Virus record (IMG/VR): IMGVR_UViG_3300036838_000048
Span: 1 to 23,415 of that record
DNA: 23,415 nucleotides
Source: a virus
Strand: one strand, 5' to 3'
Under the pieces are notes generated by a model, which was given only the letters and a program-made list of their open reading frames with translations, did no database searches and was not told the DNA's origin. How positions within the stretch are numbered: position 1 is the first letter of the stretch; every line of letters starts with the position of its first letter. This document shows positions 2,782-22,460 of this stretch, in pieces. The translations under genes and the position numbers were made by a program.

Positions 2782-5559
2782 TCACTCCACGAGATCGAGC
2801 GACACCATGTCCTCCTCGCGGATCACCACGAACCCGCGTCTGACGTCGTCGTCGGGGTTGTTGATCATGTGCGCGATCGCGACCCACTTCGTGCCGCGGG
2901 GATCCCGCCACATGTGCCAGACCTCACCCTGGATAAACTCGTCAATCTGGGGGAGATTTTCGAGATTTGCGATGTTTCGCCTACCGACGTAGTTGCGCAC
3001 CTGCAGCGGGTTGCTGTACGGGGCGCGAAGCTCGATCTCCACGACGTCACCTACCGATATCTCCACGGGAAAGTGCGCTCCGGTACGTGGGTGTGGCGGC
3101 GGAGTGAAGGTGAGACTTCGCGTGCCGTCGTCGAGGTAACCGACCGCGAGCGCGCGGCGGATCCGATCCTTGATCCGCTCGATCTGAAACTCGAGCAGCT
3201 GCTCGAACTCCTCCGGTCCTCCGAGGTGGTCCATGATACGCTCGAAATTTTCCGCGTCGCGCGAAGGTCGCCACGCGATCCTCCTCAGGTCGTCGTCGTA
3301 CCCCCCCTCGAGCAGCTTGTAGATGAATAGGATCTCGTCGTCGGTGAGCTCCACGGTGGCGATTTCTATGTACTCGGCTGGCGACAGGTTCGGTCCCAAG
3401 ATCAGCTCGAACTCCGGCCCGCCGATTAGGCTTCGCTGTCGATCTAGGTTTGCGAGTTCGAATAGCTCGCGCTGGATCGCCTCGAACCGCGCGTCCTCGG
3501 CGAGGCTCATCGCCGGCGCTCCCTGGCGCCCACCTCGCAGGGTCCACGAGCCGAACGTCCGCTCGAGGTCGATCGGCATTGCCGACACCCCCGAGAGGCT
3601 CCGTCTGCCTCGGGGAATATCGTTCATCTCCTCGATCGTGCGCCCCGGCTGCACGAGCCAATTGTGCTCGTGGGAGTCGTTGTTGTCGTAGATCAGGTTG
3701 AGGATCTGAAGTCGGCGTGCCTGGTCGAGACCGCGGATGTCGCCGTCGCCGAAGAGGTCGTCCAACACGTTCCCGGTCGATCGCGTATCGTTAGCGGTGT
3801 AGTAACCAAGCGGCTTCCACCCGTCGAGGTACGTCTGCGCGATGATCCCCATCTCCCCGTTTTCGAGTACCCGAACGAGCTCGGTGTCGGGGCGCGGCAA
3901 CCCGAGAAGCCGCGCGAAGAAGGTACCCCATTCCTCGTTGACGTATACGGGGTAGATCTCCTGCACCTCGCCGTTGATACCCTTCAGGATCCACCGGTTG
4001 TCGATGACCGCGATCGAGCCGTTGACTCCCCCGCCGAGGGTAGTCGTAAACCTATTGCCGAAAAACTGGGTCGCGATGTCGATCACATCGAGCGCGTCGA
4101 AGATCGGCTCGTTGTCGATCGCGGTGCCGATCCCAAACAACGTGGGATCTCCAGTTTTCTTCATCTCATCTACGAGATCACCAAGTGAAATTTCCCCCAA
4201 GCGATACCTAGCGATGAACTCGTCAACCCAGTCGTCGATCCCGAACGCCTTGTCAATTAGAGTGTTGACGTCCCTTCCTCTCAGGGTACGCGTCGCTTCC
4301 CGAACCTCGTCCGCGAACGCCTGCAAGGGAACGCTCTCGTCGGGTACGAGCGACACGTGGGCGTGGGCGACCCGCACGCCAAGCACGTCGTCGATCGCCT
4401 GCCGCACCGGCAGGGCACGTCTCTCGATCCCCGCGATCGCCGCGTTCTTCATCCGGGCGGGGATCCCCGGCGCCAGCACCTCACCGGCCTTCTCGACGAG
4501 CGGCATGAACTGCGAGGTCAGCCACGTCTCCAGCCACTCGACGCTGCCGACCAGCGCCGCTGTCGCCTCGTAGCTGTCGAGTCCCGCACGGATCGGCGGC
4601 GGGATGAGTTCGATCTTACCCACCGCGTTCCAACGCCGGATCGCCCTAACCGCGGTGGCCAGCACCAGCTCGTCGGTGAAGGTCAGCGCCCCGAACCGGG
4701 CAATCTCCTCGAGTGACGCGCGGTGGAGCGCTCCACGCCCCGGCTGCGGCGCGAACGCGCGGCGGCAGTTCGGGTGGGAGATGACGTGGGAGTACGCGTA
4801 GTCGAGGGTCCAGATCTGCCCGTTCGCCCTCGCGCAGTCGGAGTCCTGGGTACCGTCGAACACCAGCACCCGACTTACCCCCTCCTGCCGCGACTTGTTA
4901 AGCGTTCCGACGTTGAACGCGTTCGCGCTCTTGGTGCGGATCAGCATCCGCGAGTACGCCTCGGCGTCCCAGAAGCGTCCCGACCTGTCGATGATCTGCA
5001 CTCCGTTCTTCCAGAGTTCGTCGCGCAACCTACGCGCGGCGTCGGCCGGGGACAGCTCCCCGAGAAGCAGCTGCTGCGCCACCAGCTCCCGGCCGGCGAC
5101 CTGAATGAGTCCCCGGCGATCGTCCGTCAGGCGCTCGAGTTGGCGCTGCGCCGCGACCTTGAGTCGAAACTGCTGGGGAACCTGCTGCAGTCCCGTCGCC
5201 ACGTCGGCGTACGCGTCGCGCACCACCTCGGCGATCGCGTCCTTGTGAGCTAACGTGAAGTTCGCCGCGGTGCGAAGCTGCATAGCGGCCGCGATGTGAC
5301 CTTGCGCGTAGAGCCTCGACACGTTCGTAGTCGCCCAACCGCGGGCTAAGCGCGTCGCCTCAGAGTACGCGCGCTCGACCTCACGCTGCAGGGCCGTGTA
5401 GCGTTGCAGTCGGCTAAGGCGAGACGGGTCCGTCTCGGGAAGCGCCTGCGCCTCGGAGACCGCGCGGTCGAGAGTCTCCTGCGCCTTGTGCACCTGCACG
5501 AGCAAAAACGCTAGGTCCGGGTCGTCGGGACCTGGCGCCCTCCAGGGGATGACGGCCAT
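2782..5559 (-). CDS. MuF-type minor head protein with C-terminal HipA/PI3-4-kinase-like domain
   Basis: A 925-residue protein, two to three times the usual length of MuF/SPP1 gp7-like minor head proteins. Residues about 150-271 are MuF-like (IRTKSANAFNVGTLN at 207, VFDGTQDSDCARANG at 233, SHPNCRRAFAP at 261). Such proteins bind the portal and can be ejected with DNA. Residues about 290-495 are helical and unassigned. Residues about 500-670 look like an atypical kinase: Gly-rich loop LGGGVNGS (508-515), candidate ATP-binding Lys526 in WILKG, N-x-D-x-H-x-x-N at 626-633 (Asp628), and metal-binding-like Asp664 in PIDLERTFG. The last 100 residues are beta-rich. The kinase call is motif-based inference. 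MuF proteins with C-terminal toxin domains are known in temperate phages; here the cargo would be a kinase-like fold. The ATG at 5559 has a weak Shine-Dalgarno. Confidence 0.85.
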   Translation of the reverse strand: MAVIPWRAPGPDDPDLAFLLVQVHKAQETLDRAVSEAQALPETDPSRLSRLQRYTALQREVERAYSEATRLARGWATTNVSRLYAQGHIAAAMQLRTAANFTLAHKDAIAEVVRDAYADVATGLQQVPQQFRLKVAAQRQLERLTDDRRGLIQVAGRELVAQQLLLGELSPADAARRLRDELWKNGVQIIDRSGRFWDAEAYSRMLIRTKSANAFNVGTLNKSRQEGVSRVLVFDGTQDSDCARANGQIWTLDYAYSHVISHPNCRRAFAPQPGRGALHRASLEEIARFGALTFTDELVLATAVRAIRRWNAVGKIELIPPPIRAGLDSYEATAALVGSVEWLETWLTSQFMPLVEKAGEVLAPGIPARMKNAAIAGIERRALPVRQAIDDVLGVRVAHAHVSLVPDESVPLQAFADEVREATRTLRGRDVNTLIDKAFGIDDWVDEFIARYRLGEISLGDLVDEMKKTGDPTLFGIGTAIDNEPIFDALDVIDIATQFFGNRFTTTLGGGVNGSIAVIDNRWILKGINGEVQEIYPVYVNEEWGTFFARLLGLPRPDTELVRVLENGEMGIIAQTYLDGWKPLGYYTANDTRSTGNVLDDLFGDGDIRGLDQARRLQILNLIYDNNDSHEHNWLVQPGRTIEEMNDIPRGRRSLSGVSAMPIDLERTFGSWTLRGGRQGAPAMSLAEDARFEAIQRELFELANLDRQRSLIGGPEFELILGPNLSPAEYIEIATVELTDDEILFIYKLLEGGYDDDLRRIAWRPSRDAENFERIMDHLGGPEEFEQLLEFQIERIKDRIRRALAVGYLDDGTRSLTFTPPPHPRTGAHFPVEISVGDVVEIELRAPYSNPLQVRNYVGRRNIANLENLPQIDEFIQGEVWHMWRDPRGTKWVAIAHMINNPDDDVRRGFVVIREEDMVSLDLVE

Positions 5560-7808: not shown

Positions 7809-8849
7809 TCAGTCGGACCAGGTTGTTCCCTGGCGCTGCTCGCTGCCAGGCTTGGCTGCACCCGTACCGATCACCGTCGGTACGGACTGACCTCCTAGAA
7901 CGCTGATGTGGGGCAGCTCCTTCGCGGACTCGATCTCGCCGGCGATCTCCTCGTCGGTGGCTCCCGGCTTGAGCCGGGATACGAGCCGCTCCGTGACGGC
8001 AGCCTTCATCAGTTCACCCGAGATGGCGGCGGCCACCTTCTCTGTGATCCTTTCCTCGAGCTCCTCGGTCTCGTCCGAGACCACGAGTTCGGAAACCTTG
8101 GCCACGACCATGTCCAACTCGGCGTCCTCGCCGATGCTGAGGGCCGCGCGCAGCCGAGCCATCGCGTCTACGTGACGATCGAGCTCGGTCTGTACCGGCG
8201 CCTTAGCCTGAGCGAGCAACGCTTCCGGCAGCTCGTCGACCTTTAGCGACGCGATTACCTCGTTGCGATCCAACTCTTCCTCCTGTCTTTGCTCTCCGCT
8301 AACTCCTACCAACTCCGTCACCATGCCGGCGCGCCCCTTGGGCGTCCAGTCCAGTGACCAGAGGTCGTAGGAAACCACCTCGTCGTCCTTGACGCTCCGC
8401 ATCCCCCAGACGGAGACGGAGTTCACGACGTCCGCGCCCGACGCCGCCAACGCGAGCTGCTGCCGCAGCTCGGGGGCGGTTGGAGGCACGTAGCCCTTGA
8501 CGTAGAGGATCTGCTCCGCCTCGTTGTAGTGGGCTCCGACCCACGCGGTAACGGGCTCGCGCCACTCGTACTCGATCTTGTCGGGATCCTGGTGGCCGCG
8601 GTAGCCGGGAGGACGCTTCTCGTTGATCTGCTTCTCGAGTGAGCGCATGACGTCGGCCCCGTAGTTGGGACCCTTCCCGCCGTTGCCGCGACCTGGCTTG
8701 ACCTTCACGGTGGCGAACCACGGATCGGGGTCGACGGCCTTCAGCGCCTCGAGGTTGAAGCCGGGGGCGAAGGGAACGTCGGTGGCCGGAGCCGCGACGA
8801 ACTCACCCGACAGCTGCGAGACCCGTTGCTCTATCGTCTTCGTTGTCAC
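7809..8849 (-). CDS. Prohead protease with C-terminal scaffold region
   Basis: A 346-residue protein beginning at GTG 8849 (GGAG six bases upstream), overlapping the portal 3' end by 47 nt. The N-terminal about 185 residues look like the fused capsid maturation protease: His86 in GYRGHQDPD, Ser144/Ser146 in VVNSVSVWG, and the later SYDLWSLDWTPKGRAGM block, similar to the H and S blocks of phage prohead serine proteases. Residues about 190-300 are charged and helical (EELEERITEKVAA), a typical scaffolding coiled coil. The C-terminal SEQRQGTTWSD may be the capsid-binding tail. It would self-process after shell assembly. I place the active residues by pattern only. Confidence 0.8.
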   Translation of the reverse strand: MTTKTIEQRVSQLSGEFVAAPATDVPFAPGFNLEALKAVDPDPWFATVKVKPGRGNGGKGPNYGADVMRSLEKQINEKRPPGYRGHQDPDKIEYEWREPVTAWVGAHYNEAEQILYVKGYVPPTAPELRQQLALAASGADVVNSVSVWGMRSVKDDEVVSYDLWSLDWTPKGRAGMVTELVGVSGEQRQEEELDRNEVIASLKVDELPEALLAQAKAPVQTELDRHVDAMARLRAALSIGEDAELDMVVAKVSELVVSDETEELEERITEKVAAAISGELMKAAVTERLVSRLKPGATDEEIAGEIESAKELPHISVLGGQSVPTVIGTGAAKPGSEQRQGTTWSD

Positions 8850-10362: not shown

Positions 10363-11991
10363 CTAACCCACCAGCTTCGCGTTAGCTAGTAGCTGCCTCG
10401 TTTCCTCGTCGACGGGCTCCTGCGCGAGGGCTGAGCCGAGCGCCGCCTGCAGGAACAACTCGGTCGAGTCGAGTCGGTCGTCGTGCCGACCTTCGGGAAA
10501 GTCGATCCACTGGTCGTAGAAGTTTTCGGTCTCGTCGTCGCCGTAGATTCCCTCCCCCCGCGAGTACACGACGACGCGCCCGATGTCGAACAGCGCGCCC
10601 ATCGACTCGAACCGGGTCTCCTTCGAGGTCTTCGGGGTTGGAGCCTTGTACGCGGGGACGCTCGTCTCCCGCCAGAGCATCTGCTTCTGCGCCACCTGGA
10701 AGGCGACCGACTCGACCGCGACCTTGCGAAGCTGGTACTTCTTGTGCAGCTTAGCCAGCTCCATGGTGCCCTCGTAGATCCCCCACTTCTGGTTGGCCAC
10801 GATCCCGAGCACGACGACCCTTCCCGACTTCTCCTTGATGCCGTACGTGATCGAGTACTCGTCGGGAGACGGCCCCTCGGCCTCGCCGGTGGCGGGGTCG
10901 GCTCCCGCGAAGTAGCCGGCCCCGTCGAAGTTGACGTCGCTCCACTCCACGAACTTGAGCCACTCCGCCTTCAGCTGCTTCCCACCCTCGTCCTTAGACT
11001 CGTTCAGGTACTTGCGCGCGAACCGGCGCTCTCCCTGCCGCTCCCGCGCGAGCTTGAGGCGTTCCCGCGTCATCATCAGCGGCTCCCCCGGCTCCCCGTA
11101 CCGTCCGTCCCTGTCGTACGCGCTTAGGTGCATGTGCCGGTAGCCGGGTCGGGTCGCCATCGTGTTGGTCAGGTCCCGCTTCGTCTGCAGCGTGCCGTAC
11201 GTGGAGCAGATGCCCCCGTCGACGACTCGGTTCTCGATGATCTCCTGCCAGTTTTCCTGGTCGGCTTGGTTCATGATCTCGGAGAGCGCGCGGCGTCGGT
11301 CCTGCACGTCGTCGCCGAACGCGTAGTCGAGGCGGGCCCCCTGGATCGTGCCGGTGATCCCCGTCGTCTGAATCGTCGGGTCCTTCGTGCGGTCGCGCCG
11401 CTGAACGAAGATGCGGGTTTCAGACACTCCGGCGCGGTAGTCGGGGCGCAGCTCGGGAAAGTCGGCACGAAGGCGCTGGTTGTGCTCGAGGTGCCAGCGG
11501 ATCACCGACAGCGGCTTCTGCGCGTCCTCCGCGCGGTTGCCGATCAACGCTCCCTTCGCCTCCTGATCGACGAGGGTGATCCACAGCGGGAGCACGACCG
11601 AGAGCCACGTCGTCTTCGTGTGCTCGATCGGGACAAGCAGCGCCGAGTACGACGTGCGGGCGAACTCCTGGGCGTCCTCGGGACGCGGTACCTCCTTGAG
11701 GATCTCGGGGTCGAACCGGCTCCCCTTGAGGACGTGGTAGACCATGTCCCGCTGAAACTCTCGAGTGTCGGTCGTCCACCGCACGTCGTGGGGACGCACG
11801 TACGTCTCCCCGAAAAAGATCGGGTCGACGAGCGCCCGCCGAACTACGTCGGATCTACTCTCCGGGTCGTAAAACGTCCGGAGCTTCGAGATCGTAGCCA
11901 GCACCGAGCGCTGGAGAGCTGATTCCTGTGTAGGTGTCGACGGTGTTGGTGAAGTAGGCTTGGGCTTCTGTGAGGAAACCAGGGATGTCAC
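10363..11991 (-). CDS. terL: Terminase large subunit
   Basis: A 542-residue DNA-packaging motor by the longest reading (GTG at 11991). The ATPase part has a variant Walker A at 121-129 (PIEHTKTTW) and Walker B at 222-228 (DYAFGDD). The nuclease part has Asp365 in AGADPATG, Glu427 in VAVESVAF and Asp504/505/508 in RHDDRLDS, an RNase H-like acidic set. It follows the small terminase and precedes the portal. The start is uncertain: a near-perfect Shine-Dalgarno (GGAGGTGA) overlaps the GTG itself, whereas an in-frame CTG (codon 4) lies 8 nt after GGAGG, and a GTG at codon 30 (11904) is also possible. The reading overlaps the small terminase gene by 137 nt. Confidence 0.95.
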   Translation of the reverse strand: MTSLVSSQKPKPTSPTPSTPTQESALQRSVLATISKLRTFYDPESRSDVVRRALVDPIFFGETYVRPHDVRWTTDTREFQRDMVYHVLKGSRFDPEILKEVPRPEDAQEFARTSYSALLVPIEHTKTTWLSVVLPLWITLVDQEAKGALIGNRAEDAQKPLSVIRWHLEHNQRLRADFPELRPDYRAGVSETRIFVQRRDRTKDPTIQTTGITGTIQGARLDYAFGDDVQDRRRALSEIMNQADQENWQEIIENRVVDGGICSTYGTLQTKRDLTNTMATRPGYRHMHLSAYDRDGRYGEPGEPLMMTRERLKLARERQGERRFARKYLNESKDEGGKQLKAEWLKFVEWSDVNFDGAGYFAGADPATGEAEGPSPDEYSITYGIKEKSGRVVVLGIVANQKWGIYEGTMELAKLHKKYQLRKVAVESVAFQVAQKQMLWRETSVPAYKAPTPKTSKETRFESMGALFDIGRVVVYSRGEGIYGDDETENFYDQWIDFPEGRHDDRLDSTELFLQAALGSALAQEPVDEETRQLLANAKLVG

Positions 11992-12580
11992 CTCCGGCGT
12001 TCTGAATGTAGCGAATCGCGATCGTGAAGAGAGCCTCCGACCACTCCATGAACTGCGGCACCTCGATCACCAGCTTCTGACCTTCGGTCATGTCGTGATG
12101 CTGCTTCACCATGGCGGAGATCTTGTGCAGCGCGTTGACGACGTCCGTCATCTGATCCATGTCAAGCTGCGCCGGGTCAGGTTCGTCCCCGAGCGCGTCG
12201 TCGACCACGGCCCACGCGGCGGCGACGGCACTCGAGATGTTCATGAACTCGTAGCTGTCGAGGTACTCGCGAAAGCGTTCGGCCACGCGCCGGTGCCGAA
12301 GGAGTGACGTGTTACCGGTGCGGAGGAGGTTCTTACCCTGCATGCCGGCATGCTTGCGACACCTCCCCTCGCCGGGATGGTCGGTTCCCGCGCCGGGACG
12401 CTGGCGGCAGACTCCCTTGAGGTGGCCGAAGCCAAGCTGCGTGGTGAACTCATCGGGCGCGCGCTTCTTGCCGCCGCAGATCGCGCGGCCTACCTTCGCC
12501 TCGACGGCCGTCACGGCCTCGATGTAGTCCTTGTCCCAGGACGACGCGATGATCGTGCCGAACGGGAGGGTCTTCGGCAT
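11855..12580 (-). CDS. terS: Terminase small subunit
   Basis: A 241-residue protein by the ATG at 12580, which has GGGGAGGTC directly before it (tight spacing); the frame is open back to 12616. The N-terminal 80 residues contain a zinc-like pattern, Cys35, Cys58, Cys74 and His77, with RPGAGTDHPGEGRCRKHAG, a phrase characteristic of small terminase subunits with an HPG...C-x-x-H block. A helical middle (AERFREYLDSYE, AVAAAWAVVDDAL) is compatible with the DNA-binding and oligomerisation core. It is immediately upstream of terL. It should recognise the packaging site and regulate the motor. The gene is the first of the late head operon, with a 313-nt gap in front. Confidence 0.82.
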   Translation of the reverse strand: MPKTLPFGTIIASSWDKDYIEAVTAVEAKVGRAICGGKKRAPDEFTTQLGFGHLKGVCRQRPGAGTDHPGEGRCRKHAGMQGKNLLRTGNTSLLRHRRVAERFREYLDSYEFMNISSAVAAAWAVVDDALGDEPDPAQLDMDQMTDVVNALHKISAMVKQHHDMTEGQKLVIEVPQFMEWSEALFTIAIRYIQNAGGDIPGFLTEAQAYFTNTVDTYTGISSPALGAGYDLEAPDVLRPGE

Positions 12581-12647
12581 GACCTCCCCACCTACTTTCA
12601 TAGCGTTGCGCGGCATCGGTCGTGAATCATAACCCAGGCGCTAAAGA

Positions 12648-12698
12648 AGCCAGGACACCTGGAGGAGGAGGTCAGCCCAAACTCCAAACGCCCTGGCT
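12648..12698 (-). ncRNA. Candidate leader RNA hairpin presenting an anti-Shine-Dalgarno loop
   Basis: On the minus strand AGCCAGG (12698-12692) pairs with CCTGGCT (12654-12648). The 37-nt loop contains CTGACCTCCTCCTCC (12675-12661). This is the exact complement of GGAGGTCAG, the Shine-Dalgarno used by at least seven genes to the right. CCTGGCT can alternatively pair with the nearer CCAGG (12662-12658, 3-nt loop), so two folds exclude each other. The downstream bases TTCTTT resemble a weak terminator. The RNA role is an inference. Confidence 0.4.
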
Positions 12699-12730
12699 CC
12701 CACGAGCCTTGTCGGCCGGTTTCGTCTACG

Positions 12731-12754: not shown

Positions 12755-12759
12755 TAGGC

Positions 12760-12792
12760 GAACTGCCCGGCGGTCAGACTACCGGGCAGTTC
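12760..12792 (-). terminator. Terminator-like hairpin after the DUF932 gene
   Basis: GAACTGCCCGG at 12760-12770 is a perfect 11-bp match to CCGGGCAGTTC at 12782-12792, with an 11-nt loop. No strong T-tract follows on either strand, which is normal for actinobacterial intrinsic terminators. It would end the 13823-12894 transcript before the terminase operon. It could also act in both directions. Confidence 0.75.
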
Positions 12793-12794
12793 AC

Positions 12795-12893: not shown

Positions 12894-13823
12894 TCACGCC
12901 GCCTTCAGCAGCGAGAGCGCCTTCGCCTTCGTGCGGTACGCGACTCCGTCCCAGATCGCCGTCAGCTGAGCCTCAGGAGACCGCGGCTCGCGTAGCCAGT
13001 CGGTGTATTCGCTGACCGCGTTCAGCGCCGCCCACCGAGTCCCGCGCACGTTCTCGAGCGTCGAAGACTCGGCGAACGTCCGGGTCAGAAGCTCGACGGT
13101 CGACGCCTTGCGGGGCCGGTCGGGGAGTAGCTCGTTCGCGAACTCCTCGAACTCCTTCTCCGTCATCGCGACGCTGAGGAGAGCCTCGGCCTCCTTCTCG
13201 AACGCGTCCGCGTACTTGAACGTCAGCTTGAGCGCCTGCCGCGCCTCCTCGAGTCGCGCCTTCGCGGTCTCGATGTGCCGGACGGACCACTTCTGCAGCG
13301 CGCCCGCGACGGCCATGTTGAACGTGTTCTCGCACATGATGCGGATCTTCGACAGCGAGACCGTGATGGCCCTGCTGCCGTCGTGGGACGTCGTCAGGTG
13401 CATGTACGTCTGGTGGGGGTCGACGCCGCCGACGTTCACGTCGAGCTGCGCTACCCGCGCCGTGATCCACACCCACCGGCCGCCGCGAAACTCGCCGGAC
13501 GCGTGGTACTTGGCCTCGTTCGAGTCGACGAGGTTGTCGAAGAACTCGAAGCACTGCGCGTTGGGCCACGCCTGGTACGTCGGGCTGACGAAGCCGAGTG
13601 CCTCCTTCGTGTCGGGCCGGACCAGCGCTACCCGGTCGGGCACCTTCGTGTACTGCGGTCGAGCCGCGTGGCCCCAGTCGACCTTCAGCGGTCGCTTCTC
13701 GACCGTCCAGTCGAGTCCTCCCCGCCGCAGCGCTTCCTGCGCCGTCATCGCTCCCTCGACGGACGTGCCCACCGTTTCCCACGGATTGGGTCTCGTCGCG
13801 GCGATTGCCGTTACCTCACTCAT
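12894..13823 (-). CDS. DUF932-like phage/plasmid protein
   Basis: A 309-residue protein using the ATG at 13823, which has GGAGGAGGTCAAGAC before it; the frame extends 19 codons upstream through the leader hairpin to an ATG next to the promoter. The sequence resembles DUF932 (phage/plasmid-like protein family, TIGR03299 type): a VRPDTKEALGFVSPTYQAWPN-like segment (key residues VSPTYQ), a GEFRGGRWVWITARV strand, SHDGSRAITVSLSKIRIMC, then a charged helical C-terminal half. The biochemical function of the family is not established; it is common in phages and mobile elements. It is the last gene before the terminator hairpin. Confidence 0.85.
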   Translation of the reverse strand: MSEVTAIAATRPNPWETVGTSVEGAMTAQEALRRGGLDWTVEKRPLKVDWGHAARPQYTKVPDRVALVRPDTKEALGFVSPTYQAWPNAQCFEFFDNLVDSNEAKYHASGEFRGGRWVWITARVAQLDVNVGGVDPHQTYMHLTTSHDGSRAITVSLSKIRIMCENTFNMAVAGALQKWSVRHIETAKARLEEARQALKLTFKYADAFEKEAEALLSVAMTEKEFEEFANELLPDRPRKASTVELLTRTFAESSTLENVRGTRWAALNAVSEYTDWLREPRSPEAQLTAIWDGVAYRTKAKALSLLKAA

Positions 13824-13842
13824 GTCTTGACCTCCTCCGGTC

Positions 13843-13881: not shown

Positions 13882-13894
13882 GCTATTGTATCAC
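13882..13894 (-). promoter_or_regulatory. Promoter P2, extended -10 GTGATACAATAGC
   Basis: The -10 TACAAT is at 13890-13885. The TGA directly before it is the stop codon of the WhiB gene. The -35 is weak (GCGCAC at 16-nt spacing), but a CACCGTG block nearby is shared with P3 and P4. It drives the DUF932-like gene. Confidence 0.8.
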
Positions 13895-14130
13895 ATTTCC
13901 GCCACGGTGCGCGCGCGACGACGGCGCTCGCGCACCAGCTCGTTCCGGTTCAGGCCTCCCCAGATTCCTAGGTCGACCCGCGCCGCGAACGCGAACTCCA
14001 TGCACTCCTCCGTCACTGGGCAGCCAGCGCAGATGAGCTTCGCCTCGAGGCCGCGACCCACCCCATCCCGCGGGAAGAACAGGTCACTCGGCATCCCGAC
14101 GCAGGCGGCCTCGGTCCGCCAGTCCTTCAC
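13891..14130 (-). CDS. whiB-like: WhiB-family iron-sulfur regulator
   Basis: A 79-residue protein with the full WhiB signature: four cysteines Cys10, Cys34, Cys37 and Cys43 (C-x23-C-x2-C-x5-C) that hold a 4Fe-4S cluster, then GIWGGLNRNEL (residues 55-65) and a basic C-terminal tail (RERRRRAR). Members bind sigma factor region 4 and DNA and occur only in Actinobacteria and their phages, so this gene is the best host marker here. In mycobacteriophages such proteins can reprogramme host transcription. The ATG overlaps the upstream stop as ATGA, so it is coupled to the preceding gene. Its own TGA stop forms part of promoter P2. Confidence 0.96.
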   Translation of the reverse strand: MKDWRTEAACVGMPSDLFFPRDGVGRGLEAKLICAGCPVTEECMEFAFAARVDLGIWGGLNRNELVRERRRRARTVAEM

Positions 14131-14564
14131 CTGCGAAAGCTCGGCTTCCGCTCGGTGCGTTCGGCCCTGAGCCGCCGCCCGCTGAAGAGCTCGTACCGGG
14201 GCGTCAGGGTGAAGAGCTTGAACCCGTTTCCCTCAGCCTCGGTCTCGTCGACCGGTTCGGTCTCGACGGAGAGCCACTCCGAGTACTCGAGCGTGGTAGT
14301 CTTGACTTTGCGGCCACCGGACCCGTCGGGTAGGAGCAGATTGTACTCCATCGGGTACTCCAGTTCCCGAACGCTCTCGACCGCGTAGACCAGGGCATCG
14401 GCCTTCTCCTGCGCGGACAAGCCGAACAGGTCGCCGTCGGCGTACGTGTCGAGGAAGCGGGTGACCACCCTCTCGACCTGGTCCGGGTACGCGTCCCCGC
14501 GCATGCGGACGTACGCCCTGTTGTCGTAGTCGTCCTCAACGATGATATAGCCGTGTGTGCTCAC
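14127..14564 (-). CDS. Hypothetical protein upstream of WhiB
   Basis: A 145-residue protein with a GTG start at 14564, overlapping the previous stop as GTGA, and a strong GGAGGTCAG four bases plus upstream. The N-terminus (STHGYIIVEDDYDNRAYVR) is beta-like with acidic turns, followed by helices (DQVERVVTRFLDTYADG) and another beta part; the C-terminus is very basic (SGRRLRAERTERKPSFRR). No catalytic pattern or membrane segment is recognisable. The opening resembles small actinophage proteins that start with a short sensor-like strand, but I do not assign a family. Confidence 0.75.
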   Translation of the reverse strand: MSTHGYIIVEDDYDNRAYVRMRGDAYPDQVERVVTRFLDTYADGDLFGLSAQEKADALVYAVESVRELEYPMEYNLLLPDGSGGRKVKTTTLEYSEWLSVETEPVDETEAEGNGFKLFTLTPRYELFSGRRLRAERTERKPSFRR

Positions 14565-15085
14565 TTCTGACCTCCTATTTTCTCTAGGTTCTCGGCTTCC
14601 TTGCCCAACTTGGCGAGCCGAACCAACTCGGCTAGGTTGTCGGCGGAGATCTTGATGCCGTCGTTGACCCAGCCGTACCCGTCTAGGTGACTTCCGTCGA
14701 CGGCGACCTCGAACTCGGGCAAGTTACCTAGTACCTGGCGGACCCTGCTGGCGAGTTGGTAGTAGCGCTGGTTGACCTTCTCGAAGGAGACCTTACGCTC
14801 GCGCTTCCGGTCGTTCAAGTCGAGCTGCTGCTCCCACGTGCGGGTAATGTTCCGACTCTGGACGACCGCCGGCCGCCACCCCAGATCGAGGGGCGTGCCT
14901 AGGGCGCTCAGGTAGGTAACTCGCACGCCGTCGCGGACGACGCTCGTGGGTCGGCGGCTCCAGCTGCGCGAGTCGTAGACCTCACGCTCGACGCCTACCT
15001 CGTCAACTCGCACTCGCTTGCCGAAGTCACCGTCGTACTCGACCAGGGCGTACTCGCCTCCGACCTTGATGTCGTTCTTTCTCAT
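14561..15085 (-). CDS. Hypothetical protein with beta-rich N-terminus
   Basis: A 174-residue protein beginning at ATG 15085, which overlaps the previous stop as ATGA; an in-frame ATG four codons upstream is less likely. The first 60 residues (DIKVGGEYALVEYDGDFGKRVRV) look like a small SH3-like barrel. The centre is basic and helical (NDRKRERKVSFEKVNQRYYQLASRV region) and the C-terminus is a leucine-rich helix (DNLAELVRLAKLGKEAENL). The final codons GGQK* are encoded by the Shine-Dalgarno of the next gene. Possibly nucleic-acid binding, but only by composition. Confidence 0.75.
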   Translation of the reverse strand: MRKNDIKVGGEYALVEYDGDFGKRVRVDEVGVEREVYDSRSWSRRPTSVVRDGVRVTYLSALGTPLDLGWRPAVVQSRNITRTWEQQLDLNDRKRERKVSFEKVNQRYYQLASRVRQVLGNLPEFEVAVDGSHLDGYGWVNDGIKISADNLAELVRLAKLGKEAENLEKIGGQK

Positions 15086-15660: not shown

Positions 15661-15703
15661 TTCTGACCTCCTACGCGCCCGCGGTCCGTCCTCGGTGCGC
15701 ATG

Positions 15704-15735
15704 GCTATTGTATCATATTCTCGCACGGTGTGCAA
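15704..15735 (-). promoter_or_regulatory. Promoter P3 with -35 TTGCAC, 17-nt spacer, extended -10 TGATACAAT
   Basis: The -35 TTGCAC (15735-15730) is 17 bp from TACAAT (15712-15707). GCAC-ACC-GTGC between them is a short inverted repeat that could be an operator. The stop TAA of the previous gene is 2 bases upstream of the -35. It drives the 15660-12894 genes. Confidence 0.88.
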
Positions 15736-16952: not shown

Positions 16953-16967
16953 TCTGACCTCCTCGCC

Positions 16968-16990: not shown

Positions 16991-17021
16991 GCTATTGTAT
17001 CATATCTCTCACGGTGTGCAA
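16991..17021 (-). promoter_or_regulatory. Promoter P4 with -35 TTGCAC, 16-nt spacer
   Basis: TTGCAC at 17021-17016, spacer 16, TACAAT at 16999-16994. The whole promoter is inside the end of the upstream gene; its final codons (HTVRDMIQ, then TAG) are the promoter bases, and the TAG stop is part of TACAATAG. It drives the 16952-15738 gene cluster. Confidence 0.85.
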
Positions 17022-17601: not shown

Positions 17602-17921
17602 TCGCTGACCTCCTTCAGTCCTCGCTGCCGGGCGTGCTGGTCGCACAGGTACGCCAGCGGATCCGGCTTCTTCTTGTGGGGAAACTTCCGCCACTTGAGC
17701 CAGGCGGCCGTCTCGGAGCAGTGCATGATCCGCAGCCCCCGCGTCTCGTACCGCTGGCTGCAGCGGATCTCGGGGTCGGCGACCGCCGTCCACGAGACCT
17801 CGGTGCGCTTGTCCAACTCGCGGTCGGCCTCCACGAGGCTGCGGTGGCGCCGCAGCTCGTAGTCCTGATCCGCGTCCTTGATCGTCTCGGAGACGATCCG
17901 GGTCGGGGCACGCCTACTCAT
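17598..17921 (-). CDS. Hypothetical Cys/His protein
   Basis: A 107-residue protein from the ATG at 17921, preceded by GAGGAGGTCAGA. It is helical and charged at the N-terminus (DADQDYELRRHRSLVEADREL) and has Cys54 and Cys68 and a C-D-Q-H element near the end (CDQHARQRG), so it could bind metal. It ends in KEVSE, encoded by the next gene's Shine-Dalgarno. It is the first gene of an operon transcribed from promoter P5. Function unknown. Confidence 0.75.
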   Translation of the reverse strand: MSRRAPTRIVSETIKDADQDYELRRHRSLVEADRELDKRTEVSWTAVADPEIRCSQRYETRGLRIMHCSETAAWLKWRKFPHKKKPDPLAYLCDQHARQRGLKEVSE

Positions 17922-17933
17922 TCTGACCTCCTC

Positions 17934-17953: not shown

Positions 17954-17985
17954 GCTATTGTATCACATTTCCATCCGCGGGTCAA
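17954..17985 (-). promoter_or_regulatory. Promoter P5 with -35 TTGACC, 17-nt spacer
   Basis: TTGACC at 17985-17980, spacer 17, TACAAT at 17962-17957. This is the best consensus match of the seven. It lies in a 69-nt intergenic space after the methyltransferase-like gene. Confidence 0.9.
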
Positions 17986-21399: not shown

Positions 21400-21414
21400 T
21401 CTGACCTCCTCGAC

Positions 21415-21438: not shown

Positions 21439-21451
21439 GCTATTGTATCAT
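21439..21451 (-). promoter_or_regulatory. Promoter P6, extended -10 ATGATACAATAGC
   Basis: TACAAT at 21447-21442; the TGA stop of the upstream small membrane protein (21450-21448) is the extended part. No clear -35. It drives the 21399-17991 operon. Confidence 0.8.
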
Positions 21452-22431: not shown

Positions 22432-22447
22432 CTGACCTCCTTCACGC

Positions 22448-22460
22448 GCTATTGTATCAC
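22448..22460 (-). promoter_or_regulatory. Promoter P7, extended -10 GTGATACAATAGC
   Basis: TACAAT at 22456-22451; the FnIII gene's TGA stop (22459-22457) is the extended -10. No clear -35. The leader to the ATG is short (about 12-15 nt) and has no hairpin. Confidence 0.78.

What the first reader, a model, noticed from the sequence alone, without database searches (positions are those of the whole stretch)
12648..12698. Leader RNA of the terminase operon contains the complement of the phage's own Shine-Dalgarno
The minus strand reads CTGACCTCC (12675-12667), the exact complement of GGAGGTCAG, which precedes starts at 14564, 15660, 16952, 17601, 17921, 21399 and 22431. With the longer motif GAGGAGGTCAG the match is 11 nt. 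It lies in the loop of a 7-bp hairpin, a typical way to present a pairing site. A late-operon leader that sequesters early ribosome binding sites could switch off small-gene translation when packaging genes turn on. Nothing like a start codon follows it on the plus strand, so it is not a plus-strand Shine-Dalgarno.
Basis: partly seen in the sequence, partly recalled or inferred. Interest (0 to 1): 0.75.

Follow-up and report, generated by a model that had tools for sequence, protein, structure and literature searches.

The report
Phage hairpin opposing its start signals
Just before its DNA-packaging genes this soil phage carries a strong RNA hairpin whose loop is the exact complement of the ribosome-binding signal used by its early genes, and two groups of mycobacterial phages carry the same kind of hairpin, so phages may use it to turn down a whole set of early genes; this is untested.

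Summary
GGAGGTCAG precedes all seven listed starts, and its one copy on the other strand (12667-12675) lies in a hairpin loop. The hairpin is stronger than stated: 17-20 bp uninterrupted on the minus strand (12701-12644), every non-Watson-Crick pair being G-U on that strand. The 17-nt loop holds the 11-nt complement of GAGGAGGTCAG.

The repeated start motif, mostly behind copies of one promoter (TGATACAATAGC), resembles the SAS/ESAS of Cluster K mycobacteriophages, whose role is unknown. In those phages I found hairpins at two different genome places that show the complement of SAS in the loop: the late-transcript leader of Anayavirus (loop invariant in 11/11, stem varies) and immediately upstream of terS in Kratiovirus and kin (loop invariant in 6/6, stem compensated). 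This makes a regulatory role more credible than the window alone does.

Against it: many Cluster K phages keep SAS without any antisense copy; the window's relatives lack both parts; a probable near-leaderless terS promoter lies downstream of the hairpin, so membership in the terminase leader is unproven. Pairing in trans is inferred, never observed. A terminator with a chance loop remains the main rival.

The parts
12644..12701 (-). Hairpin 2: 20-bp uninterrupted stem (17-bp core 12698-12682 / 12664-12648), six G-U pairs, 17-nt loop
   Evidence: all non-Watson-Crick pairs are G-U on the minus strand only
12665..12681 (-). Loop UUUGGGCUGACCUCCUC; CUGACCUCCUC (12675-12665) is the exact complement of GAGGAGGUCAG
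12757..12794 (-). Hairpin 1: 14-bp stem-loop downstream of the DUF932 gene, where relatives have a terminator
   Evidence: relatives
12626..12631 (-). TATGAT, candidate -10 element of a (near-)leaderless terS promoter, downstream of hairpin 2
   Evidence: L010 has TGGGTTATGCT 7 nt before its terS ATG; consensus match only
12580..12587 (-). GGAGGTCA overlapping ATG 12580 (internal or alternative terS start), possible cis partner of the loop
   Evidence: -27.3 kcal/mol
11855..12616 (-). terS-position gene (putative small terminase), in-frame starts 12616, 12601, 12580
   Evidence: about 35% identical to genes in the same place in L010, L011, L013; no PHROG or Pfam match, so the name is by position
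10363..11991 (-). Large terminase gene
   Evidence: phrog_38 3e-59
14567..14575 (-). Start motif GGAGGTCAG of GTG 14564
15663..15671 (-). Start motif of ATG 15660 (promoter copy 15715-15704)
16954..16962 (-). Start motif of ATG 16952 (promoter copy 17002-16991; 11-nt form)
17605..17613 (-). Start motif of ATG 17601
17923..17931 (-). Start motif of ATG 17921 (promoter copy 17965-17954; 11-nt form)
21401..21409 (-). Start motif of ATG 21399 (promoter copy 21450-21439; 11-nt form)
22432..22440 (-). Start motif of ATG 22431 (promoter copy 22459-22448)
13827..13835 (-). Variant start motif GGAGGTCAA of the DUF932 gene (ATG 13823; promoter copy 13893-13882)

Best explanation
The element is an RNA hairpin at the early/late junction that displays in its loop the complement of the phage's repeated early start motif. 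When minus-strand transcription crosses it (late leader or read-through), the loop base-pairs with the Shine-Dalgarno-containing motif on early mRNAs, competes with the 16S rRNA tail and lowers translation of that gene set as packaging begins. Shown: the hairpin, the strand bias of its pairs, exact complementarity including the non-ribosomal CAG part, and comparable anti-SAS hairpins in late or terminase leaders of two Cluster K phage groups. Inferred: that the RNA is made, that the loop pairs in trans, and the direction and timing of the effect.
For: Hairpin with six of six non-Watson-Crick pairs G-U on the minus strand; 0/400 shuffles. 11-nt complement wholly inside the loop; 23/5000 shuffled motifs do as well at 9 nt. 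Predicted duplexes: motif starts -19 to -27 kcal/mol, other starts -12 to -21. Anayavirus: the single reverse SAS noted by PMC3203893 is the loop of a hairpin in the 92-93 gap where late transcription starts (PMC11373665); loop invariant in 11/11 with stem changes on both sides. Kratiovirus and kin: perfect 15-bp hairpin with anti-SAS loop immediately upstream of terS, loop identical in six, stem compensated.
Against: No transcript data for this phage. A -10-like element lies downstream of the hairpin. 11 of 12 Cluster K phages tested outside the typical K1 group keep SAS with no antisense core. AnnaSerena, another SAS phage, has none in the first 50 kb. The window's relatives have neither motif nor loop. 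The loop also fits the terS start.
Confidence: 0.45

Rival explanations
1. Hairpin 2 is a transcription terminator or insulator that separates the early operon from the terS promoter immediately downstream; the loop sequence is incidental.
For: It lies between the last early gene and a TATGAT element that is probably the terS promoter; the stem is followed by TCTTTAGCG, partly U-rich; relatives have strong terminators in this gap; in Cluster K the late-leader stem is conserved while the loop is not.
Against: Hairpin 1 already stands where relatives have their terminator; a 17-nt loop and a weak U-run are atypical; the scan finds only a small inner hairpin, at chance level. It does not explain an 11-nt loop match to the start motif, nor the invariant anti-SAS loops in two Cluster K groups.
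Confidence: 0.3
2. Cis control of terS: in read-through RNA the loop pairs with GGAGGUCAUGCC at ATG 12580, about 80 nt downstream, and hides that start, so that terS is made only from its own late promoter, as T4 does for some late genes (T4 comparison from memory).
For: GGAGGTCA at 12587-12580 is the strongest start-site partner of the loop (-27.3 kcal/mol); it is in cis; the Kratiovirus hairpin also lies just upstream of a G-rich terS site (-18 kcal/mol).
Against: GGAGG ends only 2 nt before ATG 12580, too close for a good ribosome site, and ATG 12616 fits a near-leaderless start as in relatives. In Anayavirus the next gene's ribosome site does not match the loop (-10.5 kcal/mol).
Confidence: 0.1
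3. A DNA-level feature: a binding site for a regulator upstream of the terS promoter, or an inverted remnant of an early start module, with no role for RNA pairing.
For: On the plus strand CCAGGacaCCTGG precedes AGGAGGAGGTCAG, resembling the small hairpin before the motif in several early modules; the site lies about 50 bp upstream of the candidate terS start of transcription; relatives carry small inverted repeats with AGGAG-like centres in sense orientation here.
Against: No start codon and no copy of the early promoter on the plus strand. All stem mismatches are G-U on the minus strand only, which a DNA site or remnant does not predict. The motif sits where a ribosome site sits.
Confidence: 0.13

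Closest known systems
[quoted passage not shown]
   Same: A ribosome-site motif longer than needed for 16S pairing, repeated at many non-structural gene starts, often behind one repeated promoter; one antisense copy per genome in some lineages, which I find in hairpin loops.
   Different: Motif sequence (GGAGGTCAG against GGGATAGGAGCCC); the window's promoter module has no 17-bp inverted repeat; no sequence kinship between the phages was detected.
SAS-like motifs of Microbacterium Cluster EF phages such as AnnaSerena (PMC7302621)
   Same: About ten copies of a 13-bp start motif (GGGAAAGGACCCC) with an upstream conserved element.
   Different: No antisense copy in the first 50 kb.
T4 RegB and RegA (PMC3014915)
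   Same: A phage shuts off translation of its early genes at the Shine-Dalgarno or start region.
   Different: They are proteins (an RNase and a repressor); here the agent would be an RNA loop.
Bacterial regulatory RNAs with C-rich loops that cover Shine-Dalgarno sequences (e.g. S. aureus RsaA, PMC3961350 abstract)
   Same: A hairpin loop presents a pyrimidine-rich sequence to ribosome-binding sites.
   Different: Host-encoded RNAs with individual targets; here the loop matches a motif repeated across one phage's own genes, and no RNA has been detected.
Abundant non-coding RNAs of Cluster A mycobacteriophages such as D29 and L5 (PMC5712189)
   Same: Phage non-coding RNA from an intergenic region near a genome end.
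   Different: Made early from Pleft; no start-motif complementarity reported there.

Membership tests
Cluster K SAS/ESAS | 13-bp consensus GGGATAGGAGCCC at starts | tested here: not met
   The window's motif is GGAGGTCAG; same layout, different sequence. Works like, not a member.
Cluster K SAS/ESAS | Motif repeated at the starts of non-structural genes, conserved beyond the 16S-pairing core | tested here: met
   Seven starts plus one variant, none at structural genes; CAG extension conserved.
Cluster K SAS/ESAS | ESAS: promoter with 17-bp imperfect inverted repeat upstream of SAS | tested here: inconclusive
   Repeated promoter TGATACAATAGC present before six of the starts; no 17-bp repeat, only variable small hairpins.
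Anti-SAS leader hairpin (class proposed here) | Single antisense copy of the phage's start motif, in the loop of a stable hairpin on the coding strand | tested here: met
   Window; Anayavirus; Kratiovirus and kin.
Anti-SAS leader hairpin (class proposed here) | Lies in the late or terminase transcript leader | tested here: inconclusive
   Position fits, but a candidate promoter lies downstream of the hairpin.
Anti-SAS leader hairpin (class proposed here) | Loop conserved while the stem covaries among relatives | not testable with these tools
   No close relative of the window found. Met in the two Cluster K groups, not met across the whole cluster.
Trans-acting antisense RNA | Expressed RNA that pairs with the targets and alters translation | not testable with these tools
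   Needs RNA-seq and reporter assays.
Intrinsic terminator | GC-rich stem with short loop followed by a T-run | tested here: inconclusive
   Stem yes, but loop 17 nt and tail TCTTTAGCG; only a small inner hairpin is called, at chance level.

The most novel reading that the evidence does not exclude
Actinobacterial phages have repeatedly evolved late- or terminase-leader RNA hairpins whose loops are antisense to a phage-wide start motif, so that late transcription switches off translation of a whole early gene set by base-pairing; the start motif then exists partly as the target of this RNA.
Probability: 0.35. Interest if true: 0.85.

Novelty: new variant of a known kind. Interest (0 to 1): 0.64.

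Why it matters
[quoted passage not shown] If the loops pair with the starts, one RNA would control a dispersed set of phage genes at translation, an RNA counterpart of T4 RegA and RegB. Cluster K phages are standard tools of mycobacterial genetics, so the Anayavirus and Kratiovirus versions can be tested directly in M. smegmatis.

Tried and rejected
tRNA, tmRNA or Rfam family at the site: none. Plus-strand Shine-Dalgarno for a plus-strand gene: no start codon in range. Phages sharing the window's motif: the exact 16-mer GACCTCCTCCTCCAGG gave 47 unrelated places; promoter plus motif gave none; GAGGAGGTCAGNATG gave 119 single, scattered hits. Conservation of the loop in homologues of the terminase region: L010/L012, L011, L013 and L105 have no repeated start motif and no matching loop, so they neither support nor refute. 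Mimicry of the 16S tail: the loop's CUG and the K1 loop's AUCCC match the phage motifs, not the 16S end. A conserved anti-SAS loop throughout Cluster K: rejected. ZoeJ-type antisense sites at about 31.7 kb fold weakly and may serve a leftward gene. No near relative of the window in the phage records or genome contigs.

Full report
WHAT IS THERE. The window is a high-GC tailed-phage fragment with nearly all recognisable genes on the minus strand. Non-structural-type genes run from 23.4 kb down to a DUF932 gene ending at 12894, followed by a 277-bp gap and then a terS-position gene, terL, portal and other structural genes. In the gap are two hairpins. Hairpin 1 (12794-12757, 14 bp) stands where relatives have the terminator of the same upstream gene. 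Hairpin 2 is the finding: 17 uninterrupted pairs, 20 with the flanks, around a 17-nt loop. Every non-Watson-Crick pair in it (six of 20) is G-U on the minus strand, that is A-C on the plus strand, as expected if the minus-strand RNA is what is selected. It is the longest such stem in the window, and 0 of 400 dinucleotide shuffles of the gap reach 17 bp.

THE MOTIF. GGAGGTCAG occurs eight times on the minus strand, seven of them directly at starts, and once on the plus strand, in hairpin 2. These are more than good ribosome sites: five of the seven starts, plus the GGAGGTCAA variant of the DUF932 gene, sit behind a near-identical promoter TGATACAATAGC (seven copies in the window; the seventh, at 2772, has no start motif after it), often with a small GC hairpin between promoter and motif. 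This is the layout of the SAS and ESAS of Cluster K mycobacteriophages with a different sequence. It is an analogue, not a member.

CHANCE. An exact GAGGAGGTCAG on the plus strand is expected 0.011-0.027 times under Markov models. Of 5000 shuffled motifs, 23 had a 9-nt complementary run in any minus-strand hairpin loop.

AN INDEPENDENT TEST. Pope et al. (PMC3203893) state that four K1 phages each carry one SAS in reverse orientation, not obviously at a gene start. In Adephagia I located it at 58682-58694 and found that it is the loop of a long hairpin on the coding strand, in the gap between genes 92 and 93 where late transcription appears to start according to published RNA-seq (PMC11373665). 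The surrounding region is recognisable in 177 phage records. In 11 K1-type sequences the loop CCTCCTATCCC is invariant, whereas stem positions change, two pairs on both sides (C-G to U-A, G-C to A-U) and several to G-U; 8 of 500 shuffles reach the covariation score. Across the wider cluster the stem persists but the loop does not. It is a degenerate pyrimidine loop in Amginevirus and Unicornvirus, several of which still pair with SAS better than most shuffles of themselves, and it is unrelated or lost in Keshu, Yuna, MarkPhew, KiSi, SirPhilip, Nibb and Chris. Eleven of twelve phages tested outside the typical K1 group have no antisense core anywhere although they carry 13-18 SAS.

A SECOND ANALOGUE. 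Counting orientation in 40 further records revealed antisense copies at a different place in five phages that match Rando14, Omnicron, Collard, Larva and Leston (matched by sequence and record length), about 0.8-1.2 kb from the left end. There a perfect 15-bp hairpin carries the 13-nt loop TGCCTCCTATCCC. OkiRoe (Kratiovirus) has the same, between tRNA-Trp and the annotated small terminase gene. The loop is identical in all six; the stem changes in a compensated way (CAG/CTG to CGG/CCG). This is the same place as in the window: immediately before terS. Three unrelated hairpins, two different start motifs, one arrangement: this is my main reason for raising the probability above what the window alone allows.

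HOW IT MIGHT WORK. Predicted duplexes of the window's loop with motif starts are -19 to -27 kcal/mol, against -12 to -21 for other starts, and the motif starts pair less well with an assumed 16S tail than most other starts. The loop matches the phage-specific ends of the motif (CAG here, GGGAT in K1), not the 16S sequence. A hairpin RNA that competes with ribosomes at this gene set is therefore plausible. Shown: structure, complementarity, recurrence, loop invariance in the analogues. Inferred: expression, pairing in trans, direction, timing.

WHAT SPEAKS AGAINST. A TATGAT element at 12631-12626, resembling the terS promoter region of L010 (TGGGTTATGCT) and followed 9 nt later by ATG 12616, lies downstream of hairpin 2. 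If that is the only terS promoter, the hairpin is not in the terminase leader but at the 3' end of early transcripts or in read-through RNA, and a terminator role becomes more likely. Among start sites the loop pairs best with GGAGGTCA at ATG 12580 (-27.3 kcal/mol), so a cis effect on terS must be kept in mind. The nearest relatives (57-60% identity in the large terminase) have neither motif nor loop, so conservation in the window's own lineage is untested. AnnaSerena shows that a SAS phage can do without an antisense copy, at least in the 50 kb examined.

VERDICT. The finding turns an old loose end, the reverse SAS of Cluster K phages, into a testable question.

Noticed in passing
2761-2772, 13882-13893, 15704-15715, 16991-17002, 17954-17965, 21439-21450, 22448-22459 (minus): Seven exact copies of an extended -10 promoter TGATACAATAGC (0.21 expected, up to 2 mismatches allowed), six of them feeding the start motif; the one at 2772 lies in the structural region with no start motif after it.
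   Followed up: partly
7887-7895 (minus): One GGAGGTCAG inside the coding frame 7809-8849, about 90 nt before the next gene, with no start codon at a usable distance.
   Followed up: no
L011 about 4165-4190 and L013 about 1020-1045: Small hairpins upstream of terS with an identical loop GATAGGAGTA (sense, Shine-Dalgarno-like) and different stems (CGGTGA/TCACCG against GCGG/CCGC), followed by a conserved ATGAGTGTAGCGCA.
   Followed up: partly
Adephagia 36160-36198 (locus L396), also Yuna, Nibb and Cain: The sense SAS with final A (GGGATAGGAGCCA) lies in the loop of a 9-10 bp hairpin conserved across Cluster K; it could kiss an anti-SAS loop.
   Followed up: no
window 13891-14130 (minus): A WhiB-like regulator (phrog_472) just upstream of the DUF932 gene, a candidate regulator of the early/late switch.
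   Followed up: no
window 12580-12616 (minus): Start of the terS-position gene is ambiguous: ATG 12616 near-leaderless, or ATG 12580 with GGAGG only 2 nt away inside a local hairpin; relatives look leaderless at the same gene.
   Followed up: partly
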